Assembly: GCF_001182725.1 (NCBI RefSeq)
Contig: NZ_CWHU01000004.1
Location: forward strand, 161,506 to 225,505
DNA length: 64,000 bases
Source: Anaerococcus jeddahensis
Lineage (GTDB): Bacteria; Bacillota; Clostridia; Tissierellales; Peptoniphilaceae
Direction of reading: 5' to 3'
Part shown: positions 1-4,527 of the stretch, piece by piece
Layout of the letters: the number at the start of each line of letters is the position of its first letter
How positions within the stretch are numbered: position 1 is the stretch's first letter
Notes under the pieces: generated by a model
The model's input: only the letters and a program-made list of their open reading frames with translations
Databases searched by the model: none
What the model was told of the DNA's origin: nothing
Position numbers and translations under genes: made by a program

Positions 1-887
1 TCTGCTGTTATTTGTATGGCTAATTTTTCTCCTATGCCTGAAAATTCTTTTGCTATTTTGTATTCTTCTAATTCTGTGGCGATTTCTTTCATTTGTGATA
101 GAATATTATTAAGAGTTTTGTTTATTACTCTTAGAAATTCAATCGAGTCTAGGACATTCGCATCTATTTTTGAGTTACTAGATGAGATTGTTGGGATTGA
201 TTCTAAGGCATTTTGGTAAATGGTTATTGCTTTTTGTGCGTTTGGATGATATCCCTTTTTCTTTGCCCATTTTTCATAATCATTTACAAATTGCTCTTGA
301 CTTCTTTTTAATATCTTTTCACTATTAGTCCATCTTTCTACAAAGTCTATTAGTTTATCTTTTTGATAATTACCATTTGCATGGGGGATTAGTTTTTTTA
401 GTCCTGGATGTCTTTTTTCTATTTCTTTGTCTAAATAGTTTAAGTGATTTATTCTTAGTTTTTGGTAATGTTGATAGGATCTGTTTAATTGTTTTAATCT
501 TACATATTCTTCTTTATCTTCTTTGAATTGTATTAGATCATTCCAGTTCATTAAACCATATTCAGCTATGTGTATAGCATCTTTTTTATCTGTTTTTACA
601 TTTCTAAAACTTAAGGCTTGGCAAAATCTTTTCATTTTTAATGGATTTATTACGCTTACAAAAAATCCTTCATTTACTAAACTAATTAAGATAGGAATAT
701 GATAAATTTCTGTTGCTTCCATAACTATTTTTACATCTTCATCTAAAGATTTAATTTTAGCAATTAATTTATTTACATCATTTTTTACATGATAAATATT
801 AAATGGTTTAAAGATGACTTCTTTCCCAAATCCTAAGGCTGCAACTGTACTTTTAGATTTTGATACATCAATTCCTATTGAAATCAT
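1..887 (-). CDS. IS110-family transposase (DEDD/Ser recombinase), C-terminus beyond window
   Basis: Partial copy of the 407-residue recombinase at 3080-4303, identical where both can be read. The start is the ATG at 885-887, preceded by GGAGG; a TTG four codons upstream overlaps the ribosome site and is not used. The N-terminal RuvC-like domain shows D7 (GIDVSK), E57 (MEAT), and D100/D103 (TDKKDA), the DEDD set of the IS110 family. The C-terminal serine-bearing domain lies beyond base 1. The protein would cut and rejoin DNA at target and donor sites chosen by the bridge RNA encoded just upstream. Confidence 0.9.
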   Translation of the reverse strand, partial: MISIGIDVSKSKSTVAALGFGKEVIFKPFNIYHVKNDVNKLIAKIKSLDEDVKIVMEATEIYHIPILISLVNEGFFVSVINPLKMKRFCQALSFRNVKTDKKDAIHIAEYGLMNWNDLIQFKEDKEEYVRLKQLNRSYQHYQKLRINHLNYLDKEIEKRHPGLKKLIPHANGNYQKDKLIDFVERWTNSEKILKRSQEQFVNDYEKWAKKKGYHPNAQKAITIYQNALESIPTISSSNSKIDANVLDSIEFLRVINKTLNNILSQMKEIATELEEYKIAKEFSGIGEKLAIQITA

Positions 888-920
888 AAATACCTCCAAT
901 AAATTTTTATCTACCTACAC

Positions 921-1054
921 AATTATCCACTCAGTTTAGCTCGTTACACGGGTGTATTAACCCAACCTGCTTAATCGAATTCTTGATAATGGAAGGTAGC
1001 AGACTGTTTCGAGTACGGGTGTATTATCCCAAATGGGCTGCGTCTGTTACCTTC
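921..1054 (-). ncRNA. Candidate IS110 bridge RNA (copy 1)
   Basis: Left-end leader between the IS tip and the transposase start. In the sense direction an outer stem (GAAGGTA-A-CAGAC with GTCTG-C-TACCTTC) encloses a loop with CCCATTT (1031-1037) and CTCGAAA (1007-1013). The first equals the left half of the insertion target CCCATTTCGAG and the second is the reverse complement of its right half. A second stem-loop (ATTATC/GATAAT) holds AGCAGGTT (964-971) and GCTAAAC (934-940). These match the left half and the reverse complement of the right half of the IS end junction AGCAGGTTTAGTAC. Both loops share an inner hairpin GGG(N)TAATACACCC. This is the target-loop/donor-loop plan known for IS110 bridge RNAs; transcription is inferred. 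Confidence 0.82.
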
Positions 1055-1160
1055 ATTATATTAAAAAAAGTGTAGGTAGAAAGTTTTTTCTACTTACACT
1101 TTTATAGTACTAAATGGGAAAATTTTTAGTTTAACAAAATACTAAATAGACTAATGCCGA

Positions 1161-2105
1161 TTAATTTTCTATAATATTAGATTTTTTAAGATTTAGTGAA
1201 AAAATAGTCCCCTCTTTTTCTTTAGAATCAATCTTATAAGCATAGCCAAGTTTTTTTAATATTTCATTTACCAAAAAAAGTCCTATACCAGTTGAATTTG
1301 CATCTCTTTTATCACTATCTCCACTAAATCCAAATTTATTAATATTTTTCAAATCTTCTTTTTTAATACCAATTCCAGAATCTTCAATTTTTAAAATAAA
1401 ATCATGATAGGAAATTTTTATATATCCCTTGTCTGTGTATTTTATAGAATTAAACAAAACCTGCTCAAGGACAAGACCAAGCCATTTTGGGTCTGAAACT
1501 ATATTTTCATCTTCTATATCGAGAATTAATTTTAAGTTTTTATGGATAAAAAAAATCCTATATCTTTTTACAATATCTTTAATAAGCTTTTCAATAGAAA
1601 AAGATTTAAAAGAATAGTCCAGACTGTCCTGACCCAATTTTATAAAAGATAAAATCGATGCAATATAATCATCAATCCTAATAAGCTCTCTTTTTATATC
1701 ATAATTTTCTTCCCTTTCACTAATTAGAGAAATACTTGAAAGGGGCGTTTTTATTTGATGGGTCCAAATAGTCAAAAGATTTTCCAAATCATTTTGCCTT
1801 AGTTTGCTAGAAATTCTAAGATTTTCTATTTCTTTTTCCTTACTTTCAAAAATATCTTTCAAATACCTTTCATAAAGATTTTTTTCAAAAAAAGAAAAAG
1901 AATTTTTTTCCAAACACTTTTTCGCCTTAAAAAATCTAAAAATTCCTATAAATAAAAATATAAAAAATAAAATTAATAAGCAATAGGAAAAAATCCTAAA
2001 ATCTAAAGAAAAGGCTAAAGAAAATATTAAGGATGAGATAAGAAAAATAAAAAAGGAGAAAATATAAGCCCTATTAATGCTAAAAAATAATTTAAAATTT
2101 TTCAT
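1161..2105 (-). CDS. Sensor histidine kinase, intramembrane-sensing (BceS/GraS-like)
   Basis: 314 residues. Two N-terminal membrane helices (about residues 10-30 and 38-57) are joined by almost no external loop, the layout of intramembrane-sensing kinases of the BceS/GraS group. The H-box is WTHQIKTPLSS (about residue 115), the N-box EQVLFNSIKYTD, and the G boxes EDSGIGI and STGIGLFLV. It should autophosphorylate and pass phosphate to the regulator encoded just upstream, with which it shares an ATGA overlap at 2102-2105. In this group the signal usually comes from a BceAB-type peptide-antibiotic ABC transporter, and none is present here: IS110 copy 1 starts 46 bases downstream. The ligand is unknown. 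Confidence 0.9.
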   Translation of the reverse strand: MKNFKLFFSINRAYIFSFFIFLISSLIFSLAFSLDFRIFSYCLLILFFIFLFIGIFRFFKAKKCLEKNSFSFFEKNLYERYLKDIFESKEKEIENLRISSKLRQNDLENLLTIWTHQIKTPLSSISLISEREENYDIKRELIRIDDYIASILSFIKLGQDSLDYSFKSFSIEKLIKDIVKRYRIFFIHKNLKLILDIEDENIVSDPKWLGLVLEQVLFNSIKYTDKGYIKISYHDFILKIEDSGIGIKKEDLKNINKFGFSGDSDKRDANSTGIGLFLVNEILKKLGYAYKIDSKEKEGTIFSLNLKKSNIIEN

Positions 2106-2770
2106 TTTATAAAATATCCCACTCCCTTTTTTGTTTGAATGAAATCATCTAAACCAAGATTTTTTAATTTTTTCCTAAGTCTGTTGATATTTACAGTCAA
2201 AGTATTATCATCAATAAAAGAATCAGTCGCCCAAAGCTTATCCATAATAGCTTCTCTTGAAACAATTTTTTGAGGATTTTCCATAAGAATTTCCAAAATC
2301 AAAAATTCATTTTTAGAAAGATTTATTTCTTTATCATCAACTTTTAAAATCATCTTATCTTTAATTAAAGAAATATTTTTATAAGAAAGATCTAAATTTT
2401 TCCCAGAAAAATCATAAGACCTCCTAAGAAGAGCCTTTATTTTCATATTTAAAACCTGCATTGAAAAAGGCTTTGAAATAAAATCATCTGCCCCATAATT
2501 TATAGCATTAATTAAATTTATATCATCAGCTGCACTTGTTAGAAAAATTATAGGAAGATTTGAAATTTCTCTAATTTTCTCACACCAATAAAATCCATTT
2601 TCAAAAGGAAGTTTCAAATCCATCAAAACAAGCTTATACTCCCTTTTTTGAAATTCATCCAAAATATTAGAAAAATCATCCGGCACAAAACAAGCATATC
2701 TCAAAAGCTCAAGCTGAAAACAAAGCTCCTCACAAATTTTTTTATCATCCTCAACAATAAATATATCCAT
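2102..2770 (-). CDS. Response regulator, OmpR/PhoB family (BceR/GraR-like)
   Basis: 222 residues. The receiver domain (about 1-115) has the acidic pair in IVEDDKK, the phospho-acceptor aspartate in LVLMDLKLPFENG, T in FLTSA and K in DDFISKPF. The C-terminal winged helix (about 125-222) ends with the usual DDNTLTVNINRLRKKL and KGVGYFIK motifs. It is first in a two-gene operon with the kinase and should bind DNA as a phosphorylated dimer, typically switching on peptide-antibiotic detoxification or envelope genes in this subgroup. No target promoter can be identified in the window. The gene is preceded by a MITE interrupted by IS110 copy 2, so its promoter must lie within about 75 bases of the start or inside the repeat. 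Confidence 0.9.
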   Translation of the reverse strand: MDIFIVEDDKKICEELCFQLELLRYACFVPDDFSNILDEFQKREYKLVLMDLKLPFENGFYWCEKIREISNLPIIFLTSAADDINLINAINYGADDFISKPFSMQVLNMKIKALLRRSYDFSGKNLDLSYKNISLIKDKMILKVDDKEINLSKNEFLILEILMENPQKIVSREAIMDKLWATDSFIDDNTLTVNINRLRKKLKNLGLDDFIQTKKGVGYFIK

Positions 2771-2972: not shown

Positions 2973-3079
2973 CCTGCTAGGAAAAATCAAGTCTTTTTTT
3001 AAAAAAATCAAATAATTTTATTACTAAATTTGACCATAGGAAATAAGCCCTCTTGTTTGGGCTTTTTTTTTCTATTTTT

Positions 3080-4303
3080 TTATGCAGCTTTTAGTAATTC
3101 TTCCTTGTTTTTTTCCTCCATTACTTTCGCATAATATATTCTTAAAAATTTGTTTATTCCTGCTATGTTTGATACTTTTTTTGCCTTGCCTTCTCTTTCT
3201 TTTTTTATTATATATTTATATACCGAATTGCTTTCATCTTTTGCTTTTTTCATACATAACATTGCCATGTATAGTACTTTTCTTAGGATTGGATTTCCTC
3301 TTTTGGATATTTTTCTTTGTTTTGCACTAAAGTTTCCTGATTGATATGGTGGTGAATCTATTCCTACAAATGATATTAGACTTTTCTTGTTTTTGTATTT
3401 TCTTATATCTCCTATCTCTGCTGTTATTTGTATGGCTAATTTTTCTCCTATGCCTGAAAATTCTTTTGCTATTTTGTATTCTTCTAATTCTGTGGCGATT
3501 TCTTTCATTTGTGATAGAATATTATTAAGAGTTTTGTTTATTACTCTTAGAAATTCAATCGAGTCTAGGACATTCGCATCTATTTTTGAGTTACTAGATG
3601 AGATTGTTGGGATTGATTCTAAGGCATTTTGGTAAATGGTTATTGCTTTTTGTGCGTTTGGATGATATCCCTTTTTCTTTGCCCATTTTTCATAATCATT
3701 TACAAATTGCTCTTGACTTCTTTTTAATATCTTTTCACTATTAGTCCATCTTTCTACAAAGTCTATTAGTTTATCTTTTTGATAATTACCATTTGCATGG
3801 GGGATTAGTTTTTTTAGTCCTGGATGTCTTTTTTCTATTTCTTTGTCTAAATAGTTTAAGTGATTTATTCTTAGTTTTTGGTAATGTTGATAGGATCTGT
3901 TTAATTGTTTTAATCTTACATATTCTTCTTTATCTTCTTTGAATTGTATTAGATCATTCCAGTTCATTAAACCATATTCAGCTATGTGTATAGCATCTTT
4001 TTTATCTGTTTTTACATTTCTAAAACTTAAGGCTTGGCAAAATCTTTTCATTTTTAATGGATTTATTACGCTTACAAAAAATCCTTCATTTACTAAACTA
4101 ATTAAGATAGGAATATGATAAATTTCTGTTGCTTCCATAACTATTTTTACATCTTCATCTAAAGATTTAATTTTAGCAATTAATTTATTTACATCATTTT
4201 TTACATGATAAATATTAAATGGTTTAAAGATGACTTCTTTCCCAAATCCTAAGGCTGCAACTGTACTTTTAGATTTTGATACATCAATTCCTATTGAAAT
4301 CAT
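3080..4303 (-). CDS. IS110-family transposase (DEDD/Ser recombinase)
   Basis: 407 residues from the ATG at 4301-4303, which has GGAGG at ideal spacing. A TTG twelve bases upstream is in frame but overlaps that site. The N-terminal RuvC-like domain has D7, E57, D100 and D103; a coiled linker (about 120-250) follows. The C-terminal Transposase_20 domain has GIGEKLAIQITAEIGD, FVGID and PPYQSGNFSAKQ, with the likely catalytic serine at S322. The family works as a tetramer with a bridge RNA that pairs with target and donor DNA. The leader position upstream of the gene is that of the IS110 group rather than IS1111. Identity with copy 1 points to recent movement. Confidence 0.95.
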   Translation of the reverse strand: MISIGIDVSKSKSTVAALGFGKEVIFKPFNIYHVKNDVNKLIAKIKSLDEDVKIVMEATEIYHIPILISLVNEGFFVSVINPLKMKRFCQALSFRNVKTDKKDAIHIAEYGLMNWNDLIQFKEDKEEYVRLKQLNRSYQHYQKLRINHLNYLDKEIEKRHPGLKKLIPHANGNYQKDKLIDFVERWTNSEKILKRSQEQFVNDYEKWAKKKGYHPNAQKAITIYQNALESIPTISSSNSKIDANVLDSIEFLRVINKTLNNILSQMKEIATELEEYKIAKEFSGIGEKLAIQITAEIGDIRKYKNKKSLISFVGIDSPPYQSGNFSAKQRKISKRGNPILRKVLYMAMLCMKKAKDESNSVYKYIIKKEREGKAKKVSNIAGINKFLRIYYAKVMEEKNKEELLKAA

Positions 4304-4336
4304 AAATACCTCCAATAAATTTTTATCTACCTACAC

Positions 4337-4470
4337 AATTATCCACTCAGTTTAGCTCGTTACACGGGTGTATTAACCCAACCTGCTTAATCGAATTCTT
4401 GATAATGGAAGGTAGCAGACTGTTTCGAGTACGGGTGTATTATCCCAAATGGGCTGCGTCTGTTACCTTC
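4337..4470 (-). ncRNA. Candidate IS110 bridge RNA (copy 2)
   Basis: Identical to the copy at 921-1054. The target-loop guides are CCCATTT (4447-4453) and CTCGAAA (4423-4429); the donor-loop guides are AGCAGGTT (4380-4387) and GCTAAAC (4350-4356). The target guides fit this copy's own flanks, which read (sense) CCGCCCATTT before the element and TTTCGAGCG after it. A separate hairpin nearer the IS tip (4475-4520) pairs AGTGTAAGTAGAAA with TTTCTACCTACACT, and GTGTAGGTAGA recurs just before the transposase ribosome site. Confidence 0.82.
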
Positions 4471-4527
4471 ATTATATTAAAAAAAGTGTAGGTAGAAAGT
4501 TTTTTCTACTTACACTTTTATAGTACT

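What the first reader, a model, noticed from the sequence alone, without database searches (positions are those of the whole stretch)
921..1054. IS110 leader encodes a bridge RNA whose guides can be read against its own target and donor
Seen: in sense direction one stem-loop holds CCCATTT and CTCGAAA, the left half and reverse-complemented right half of the insertion site CCCATTTCGAG. The next stem-loop holds AGCAGGTT and GCTAAAC, the same relation to the joined IS ends AGCAGGTTTAGTAC. Both loops share an internal hairpin GGG(N)TAATACACCC. Known: IS110 recombinases use bridge RNAs with separate target and donor loops, each with left and right guides. Inference: this is a working bridge RNA with a core of TT/TTT. 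The loop-to-loop similarity suggests the two loops arose by duplication.
Basis: partly seen in the sequence, partly recalled or inferred. Interest (0 to 1): 0.9.

Follow-up and report, generated by a model that had tools for sequence, protein, structure and literature searches.

The report
Jumping gene carrying its own address
Beside its enzyme gene this bacterial jumping gene encodes a likely guide RNA whose two loops spell out the repeated DNA site it sits in and its own ends, so it would choose its own landing place; relatives elsewhere in its genus, family and class carry the same layout with other guides, which fit their own insertion sites better than those of other copies.

Summary
Window 921-1054 (minus strand) lies in the leader of an IS110-group element; a second copy (2973-4527) has an identical leader and an intact 407-aa recombinase with the five IS621 catalytic residues. 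The first loop holds CCCATTT and CTCGAAA, the second AGCAGGTT and GCTAAAC; the ordered target pair arose in 0 of 20000 shuffles. The genome holds six copies (four with an intact frame) and two remnants in one REP-like repeat, and 22 empty CCCATTTCGAG sites (reversed control 0). The duplication inference is weak: the 13-of-14 hairpin likeness is special to this lineage. Extras: the sister lineage sits beside terminator-like hairpins (24 of 33 left flanks; control 63 of 600), and the leader has a conserved three-arm layout (U-tract hairpin or alternative long-range helix) not seen in the IS621 copy read. No transcript or activity was testable. Verdict: a well-supported new member of a known kind, with a regulatory layout and target class I did not find in print.

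The parts
885..1111 (-). leader (left non-coding end) of IS110 copy A, from the first base of the element (1111) to the start codon (887-885); 227 nt, identical in five copies of the genome
1112..1118 (-). left target half CCCATTT in the flank; 1112-1114 are the shared core TTT
1104..1109 (-). TACTAT, predicted -10 half of a promoter that would form across the joined ends (TTGATT, 17 nt, TACTAT; 4 of 6 plus 4 of 6)
   Evidence: read by eye; below the 9-of-12 threshold of the scan tool
1070..1101 (-). 5' hairpin: arm 1 (GTGTAAGTAGA 1099-1089) and arm 2 (TCTACCTACAC 1080-1070) followed by seven T (1069-1063)
   Evidence: one compensatory pair among 22 sister leaders
910..920 (-). arm 3 GTGTAGGTAGA, perfect 11-nt complement of arm 2, 22 nt upstream of the start codon
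986..1059 (-). target-binding loop with its stems
1031..1037 (-). left target guide CCCATTT
1017..1030 (-). internal hairpin of the target loop GGGATAATACACCC
1007..1013 (-). right target guide CTCGAAA
929..980 (-). donor-binding loop with its short stem ATTCG/TGAGT
964..971 (-). left donor guide AGCAGGTT
950..963 (-). internal hairpin of the donor loop GGGTTAATACACCC
934..940 (-). right donor guide GCTAAAC
1..887 (-). start of the IS110 recombinase gene of copy A; runs off the window; in the genome its reading is split over two frames
2973..4527 (-). second, complete copy B of the element (ends AGTACT... and ...AGCAGG; core TTT kept on either side)
4337..4470 (-). the same two-loop region in copy B
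3080..4303 (-). intact IS110 recombinase, 407 aa, of copy B
2985..2990 (-). TTGATT, predicted -35 half of the joined-end promoter in the right end of copy B
   Evidence: read by eye

Best explanation
The leader at 921-1054 likely encodes an IS110-group bridge RNA that would pair through its first loop with a REP-like genomic repeat (CCCA-TTT-CGAG) and through its second loop with the element's own joined ends (AGCAGG-TTT-AGTAC), so that the recombinase beside it would insert the element there. Shown by sequence: the guides, their order, the six copies and two remnants in that repeat, the 22 empty sites, the conserved catalytic residues, the same layout with other guides in relatives, and the better fit of own guides to own sites. 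Inferred from IS621: excision as a circle, transcription from a promoter formed across the joined ends, binding of the RNA, exchange within TTT. Predicted by folding only: transcripts reading in from outside would carry all of arm 1 and could form the 5' hairpin before seven U, while a transcript started at the joined-end promoter (about leader position 15) would lack part of arm 1 and favour the arm 2-arm 3 helix that encloses both loops.
For: Guides in order: 0 of 20000 and 6 of 20000 shuffles. Insertion sites and 22 empty sites. Recombinase: Pfam PF01548 and PF02371 above cut-off, NCBIfam IS110 RNA-guided transposase 192.7 bits against a cut-off of 140, D7 E57 D100 D103 S322 align with IS621 D11 E60 D102 D105 S241. 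Target guides are the variable part of the leader in 22 distinct sister leaders (mean entropy 0.71 against 0.11 elsewhere; 0 of 209 circular shifts reach it; region borders set by me on that alignment). Guide tracking: 30 sister sites, LTG 6.90 of 9 against 5.92 permuted, RTG 7.40 of 9 against 6.63, 0 of 20000 each; by 18 haplotypes 2 and 1 of 20000; more distant relatives LTG 9.00 of 10 against 6.01 (9 of 11 loci usable, 0 of 20000), RTG 7.78 of 9 against 6.00 (9 of 11 usable, 1 of 20000). Stem support: innermost pair of the target-loop stem is A-T in L001, G-C in L006 and L012, T-A in 22 sister leaders.
Against: No RNA, binding or recombination data. No Rfam match at gathering score and none of note at E<=1. 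Donor guides do not vary in this clade, so donor pairing is not tested by covariation. Joined-end promoter is weak in this element (8 of 12) and no such site is called by the scan (which saw only the unjoined end). The simple terminator scan does not flag the 5' hairpin (0 found). The last base of RDG would pair with the cognate donor G, a state reported to hinder exchange in IS621 (PMC11208158, section 11), and would not pair with the target A. In sister copies L049 and L050 the left guide fits its own flank at only 3 of 9. Copy A's own recombinase frame is broken.
Confidence: 0.92

Rival explanations
1. The leader is only a structured 5' regulatory region of the recombinase mRNA (attenuator or translation control) and the guide matches are coincidental.
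For: The 5' hairpin with seven T, arm 3 just upstream of the ribosome-binding site and the arm 2 switch look regulatory.
Against: Ordered target guides in 0 of 20000 shuffles and guide tracking in relatives. A regulatory role can coexist with the guide role.
Confidence: 0.03
2. A genuine but dead bridge RNA: the family has stopped moving in this genome and the leader is kept only because the copies are recent.
For: Copy A's gene is split over two frames and L005 is cut short; two remnants are internally deleted; the donor-side right guide is imperfect.
Against: Four copies have an intact frame; five leaders are identical and L006 differs by a compensated stem pair, so stem pairing was still kept while the copies diverged.
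Confidence: 0.05
3. Target choice is made by the recombinase protein or by DNA shape of palindromic repeats and terminators; the RNA only helps.
For: Sister copies sharing one guide accept sites with 5 to 8 of 9 left-guide matches, and 24 of 33 left flanks are terminator-like hairpins.
Against: Within terminator sites the variable bases still track each copy's own guide; IS621 is RNA-guided (PMC11208160).
Confidence: 0.05

Closest known systems
IS621 of Escherichia coli (IS110 group; PMC11208160, PMC11208158)
   Same: DEDD RuvC plus serine Tnp recombinase, bridge RNA in the left end upstream of the gene, 5' stem-loop then target loop then donor loop, guide polarity (left guide reads like the top strand, right guide is its reverse complement, both including the core), insertion in REP elements.
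   Different: Recombinase only distantly similar (56 bits to 8wt6); core TTT instead of CT; 5' hairpin runs into a T tract and its 3' arm has a second partner (arm 3), neither of which was seen in the one IS621 copy read (L155); other repeat.
IS110/IS1111 seekRNA elements such as ISEc21 and ISEc11 (PMC11187229, passages read)
   Same: Non-coding RNA of the long end guides target choice; natural reprogramming between relatives was reported there.
   Different: No subterminal inverted repeats noted here; bridge RNA upstream as in the IS110 group.
REP-targeting IS110 elements ISPa11, ISPpu9, ISPpu10, ISRm19 (PMC1525189, passages read)
   Same: All copies listed there sit in REP sequences.
   Different: Gram-negative hosts; different repeat; no RNA was known to that paper.

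Membership tests
IS110 family recombinase | PF01548 and PF02371 domains; family model above curated cut-off | tested here: met
IS110 family recombinase | DEDD catalytic residues and catalytic serine | tested here: met
   D7 E57 D100 D103 S322 against IS621 D11 E60 D102 D105 S241, from the alignment, numbered, residues
IS110 group bridge RNA | structured leader in the long left end, upstream of the gene | tested here: met
   227-nt left leader
IS110 group bridge RNA | target loop with left guide like the top strand and right guide complementary to it, including the core | tested here: met
IS110 group bridge RNA | donor loop with the same relation to the joined element ends | tested here: met
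   AGCAGGTT exact, CTAAA exact plus one possible wobble
IS110 group bridge RNA | target guides covary with insertion sites among relatives | tested here: met
IS110 group bridge RNA | donor guides covary with element ends among relatives | tested here: inconclusive
   constant in the close clade; in the distant lineage L079-L082 the leader holds TTAGTTAG and the right end TAGTTAG (read by eye), no statistics
IS110 group bridge RNA | promoter formed across the joined ends | tested here: inconclusive
   TTGATT-17-TACTAT (8 of 12) here, TTGACT-17-TACCAT (9 of 12) in sisters, read by eye
IS110 group bridge RNA | RNA is made, bound by the recombinase and directs recombination | not testable with these tools
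   needs small-RNA sequencing and recombination assays
IS110 group bridge RNA | match to a published covariance model | tested here: inconclusive
   no Rfam 15 family matched; the models of the 2024 papers were not at hand
IS1111 group | bridge RNA in the right end and subterminal inverted repeats | tested here: not met
   bridge RNA is in the left end; repeats were not searched systematically

The most novel reading that the evidence does not exclude
The leader is a bridge RNA and a self/non-self transcription switch in one: one RNA segment (arm 2) either closes a U-tract hairpin that stops transcripts reading in from host DNA, or pairs with a third arm that wraps both guide loops, and the start site created only on the excised circle removes enough of arm 1 to choose the second state, so guide RNA and recombinase would be made only by the free circle. 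The clade that carries this layout uses re-aimable guides to live in places that tolerate insertion: terminator U-tracts and REP-like repeats.
Probability: 0.3. Interest if true: 0.78.

Novelty: new member of a known kind. Interest (0 to 1): 0.5.

Why it matters
It gives a natural series in which enzyme, donor guides and RNA frame stay the same while the target guides change with the insertion site. Such a series allows the pairing rules of bridge RNAs, their mismatch tolerance and the way guides are re-aimed to be read from genomes. The sister lineage's preference for terminator-like hairpins and the three-arm layout of the leader are both directly testable, and neither word search nor the passages read in the 2024 papers showed them ('terminator' occurs 0 times in the main texts of PMC11208160 and PMC11208158).

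Tried and rejected
Rfam, whole window at gathering score and 880-1140 at E<=1: nothing beyond chance-level microRNA matches. Protein scan of viral contigs: no relative. Genome contigs: only two contig-end fragments in Anaerococcus hydrogenalis, useful for guide identity and genus. Single against multi-copy guide fit: means 7.14 (n=14) and 6.69 (n=16), Mann-Whitney p=0.08; 9 of 9 in 5 of 14 against 0 of 16 (Fisher 0.014, a cut chosen after seeing the data); not used as evidence. The idea that guides are rewritten to match the occupied site was left as unexplained: L149 has a unique exact fit (nearest other sites 2 mismatches), but survival of well-fitting guides explains it too. The idea that TATAAT at leader 52-57 is an internal promoter was not adopted: it has no good -35 and is itself part of the target-loop stem. 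Ancient duplication of the loops: rejected as the simplest reading, with the result on its side told above. Relatives at 35-38% identity found (L136, L138, L139, L147, L148, L150, L151, L152, L154) were not read.

Full report
What was claimed.

Check. All strings are present on the minus strand at the coordinates given in 'parts'. The left end reads CCCATTT|AGTACT and the right end AGCAGG|TTTCGAG. In dinucleotide shuffles of the 227-nt leader the target pair in order within 50 nt arose in 0 of 20000 and the donor pair in 6 of 20000.

The element. The genome (1.9 Mb, 5 contigs) holds six copies, L001-L006, and two internally deleted remnants, L007 and L008. The second copy in the window (L004) is intact. 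The protein has both IS110 Pfam domains, exceeds the cut-off of NCBIfam's IS110 RNA-guided transposase and aligns all five IS621 catalytic residues. Two Anaerococcus hydrogenalis contig ends carry 87-88% identical fragments with the same guides, so the window is probably from Anaerococcus (inference).

The target. Each of the eight insertions has, on at least one side, a palindromic intergenic repeat beginning ...GACTGTTGACAAACT...CCCATTTCGAGCGAACGTAGTGAGTCGAGAAATCTC.... The exact empty site occurs 22 times in the genome, the backward control 0 times; 21 of the 22 were read in context (20 regions fetched). Three T between CCCA and CGAG in the empty site and TTT at both junctions place the core within TTT. 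IS621 also inserts in REP elements (PMC11208160, section 5).

Guides track sites. A sister lineage at 53-60% amino-acid identity was found in the genus (31 genomes searched, 16 with any IS110 match) and family (130 searched, 18 with a strong match). Its leader has the same plan and the same donor guide AGCAGGT, but the target guides differ between and within genomes. Among 22 distinct sister leaders the guide columns have mean entropy 0.71 against 0.11 elsewhere. For the 30 sites with both flanks and loop, own left guides match 6.90 of 9 against 5.92 when permuted and own right guides 7.40 of 9 against 6.63, 0 of 20000 permutations each; over 18 haplotypes 2 and 1 of 20000. Weak cases: L049 and L050 fit their left flank at 3 of 9, L047 at 5 of 9. 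Eleven relatives at 43-48% identity from the order and class searches (249 and 391 genomes, 22 and 13 with a match) were read: left guides 9.00 of 10 against 6.01 permuted (9 of 11 usable; L135 has no flank, L144's end is unclear), right guides 7.78 of 9 against 6.00 (9 of 11 usable; L137 and L145 lack the right end), 0 and 1 of 20000 (guide and flank strings chosen by me by eye).

Structure. Stem support is real but modest because the leaders are much alike: within the 22 sister leaders one compensatory pair in the 5' hairpin (A-T 14, G-C 7) and none in the target-loop stems; between lineages the innermost target-stem pair is A-T (L001), G-C (L006, L012) or T-A (22 sisters).

Three arms. Arm 2 of the 5' hairpin (TCTACCTACAC, followed by seven T) is also a perfect 11-nt complement of arm 3 (GTGTAGGTAGA), which lies beyond both loops just before the ribosome-binding site; such a pair at this distance arose in 4 of 2000 shuffles. 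Across lineages one pair of this helix changes on both sides (A-T in L001, L012 and L143; G-C in 22 sisters). In ten readable class-level relatives the 5' hairpin has at least 10 consecutive pairs in 10 of 10 and the arm 2-arm 3 helix beats shuffled arm 3 (3 or fewer of 500 reach it) in 8 of 10; L137 and L146 do not (42 and 38 of 500). Partition-function folding of nine leaders: starting at position 1 arm 2 pairs mainly with arm 1 (L001 0.58 against 0.36; the other eight 0.88-0.90 against 0.01 or less); starting at position 15, the start expected from the joined-end -10 box, arm 3 wins clearly in six of nine (0.88-1.00), slightly in L103 (0.53 against 0.33), ties in L098 and loses in L060. Equilibrium folding ignores that the hairpin forms long before arm 3 is made, and the simple terminator scan did not flag it. 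The one IS621 copy read has a 5' hairpin without T tract and no comparable Watson-Crick long-range helix. The switch is therefore a proposal.

Terminators. In the sister lineage 24 of 33 left flanks have a hairpin of -5 kcal/mol or better ending within 2 nt of the T-run at the element, against 63 of 600 control T-runs from the same loci. Because left flank hairpin and T-run stay together, the upstream gene would keep its terminator (inference).

Handshake positions (PMC11208158, section 11) read by eye: after the core the target loop has C, which would pair with the donor G; after the core the donor loop has C, which would not pair with target A but with the cognate donor G, the less favourable state. 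Sister donor loops have A there, which fits their T-run targets.

Known and new. This is a bridge RNA of the IS110 group; IS621 is the nearest characterised relative in kind. Papers: PMC11208160 abstract, sections 5, 6, 12 and passages; PMC11208158 abstract, sections 7, 8, 11 and passages; PMC11187229 and PMC1525189 passages only; others seen only as search listings. I did not find terminator targeting or the three-arm layout in these; subscription papers and preprints are not covered.

Noticed in passing
L043-L061, L098-L112 (sister lineage left flanks): 24 of 33 left flanks are terminator-like hairpins flush with the T-run where the element sits, against 63 of 600 control T-runs: a bridge-RNA lineage that seems to use intrinsic terminators as landing sites.
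   Followed up: partly
window 910-1101; L134-L149 leaders: Three-arm layout: 5' hairpin with T tract or alternative helix of arm 2 with arm 3 beyond both loops, kept in most relatives read, not seen in the IS621 copy L155.
   Followed up: partly
L149 (genome G546): Guides fit the occupied site exactly over 15 bases; the nearest other sites in that genome have 2 mismatches. Whether guides find such sites or are re-matched after insertion is open.
   Followed up: partly
L049, L050 (genome G006): Left guides fit their own left flanks at 3 of 9 only, and L050's guide TATTCTT resembles L049's flank TTATTCTTT.
   Followed up: no
L069-L071, L077-L082: Another IS110 lineage (27-29% identity) has at least some copies in the same REP-like repeat family at a second position (GATCTCT|CCATGCG) with its own matching guides (read by eye).
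   Followed up: no
L063-L067: A further IS110 lineage in genome G004 sits at CTTCC|TTTC-like sites just before start codons of genes on the other strand, that is, possibly in ribosome-binding sites (read by eye).
   Followed up: no
L114-L133: The REP-like repeat often begins directly after a short hairpin that looks like a gene's terminator stem (read by eye).
   Followed up: no
L007, L008: Internally deleted remnants keep both ends; L008 has an extra C between CCCATTT and the left end.
   Followed up: no
window 950-963; L142: The donor-loop hairpin GGGTTAATACACCC is identical to the target-loop hairpin of L142 and less like any other donor-loop hairpin compared: possible hairpin copying between loops.
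   Followed up: partly
L051, L102, L108: Three sister insertions share the flank ...GGAGGTCAGTTTTT with a long hairpin starting CTGACCCC, which looks like the end of another insertion sequence (family recalled as IS3-like, not tested).
   Followed up: no
window 1161-2770: A sensor histidine kinase and response regulator pair lies between the two copies of the element (named from the translations, no family search).
   Followed up: no
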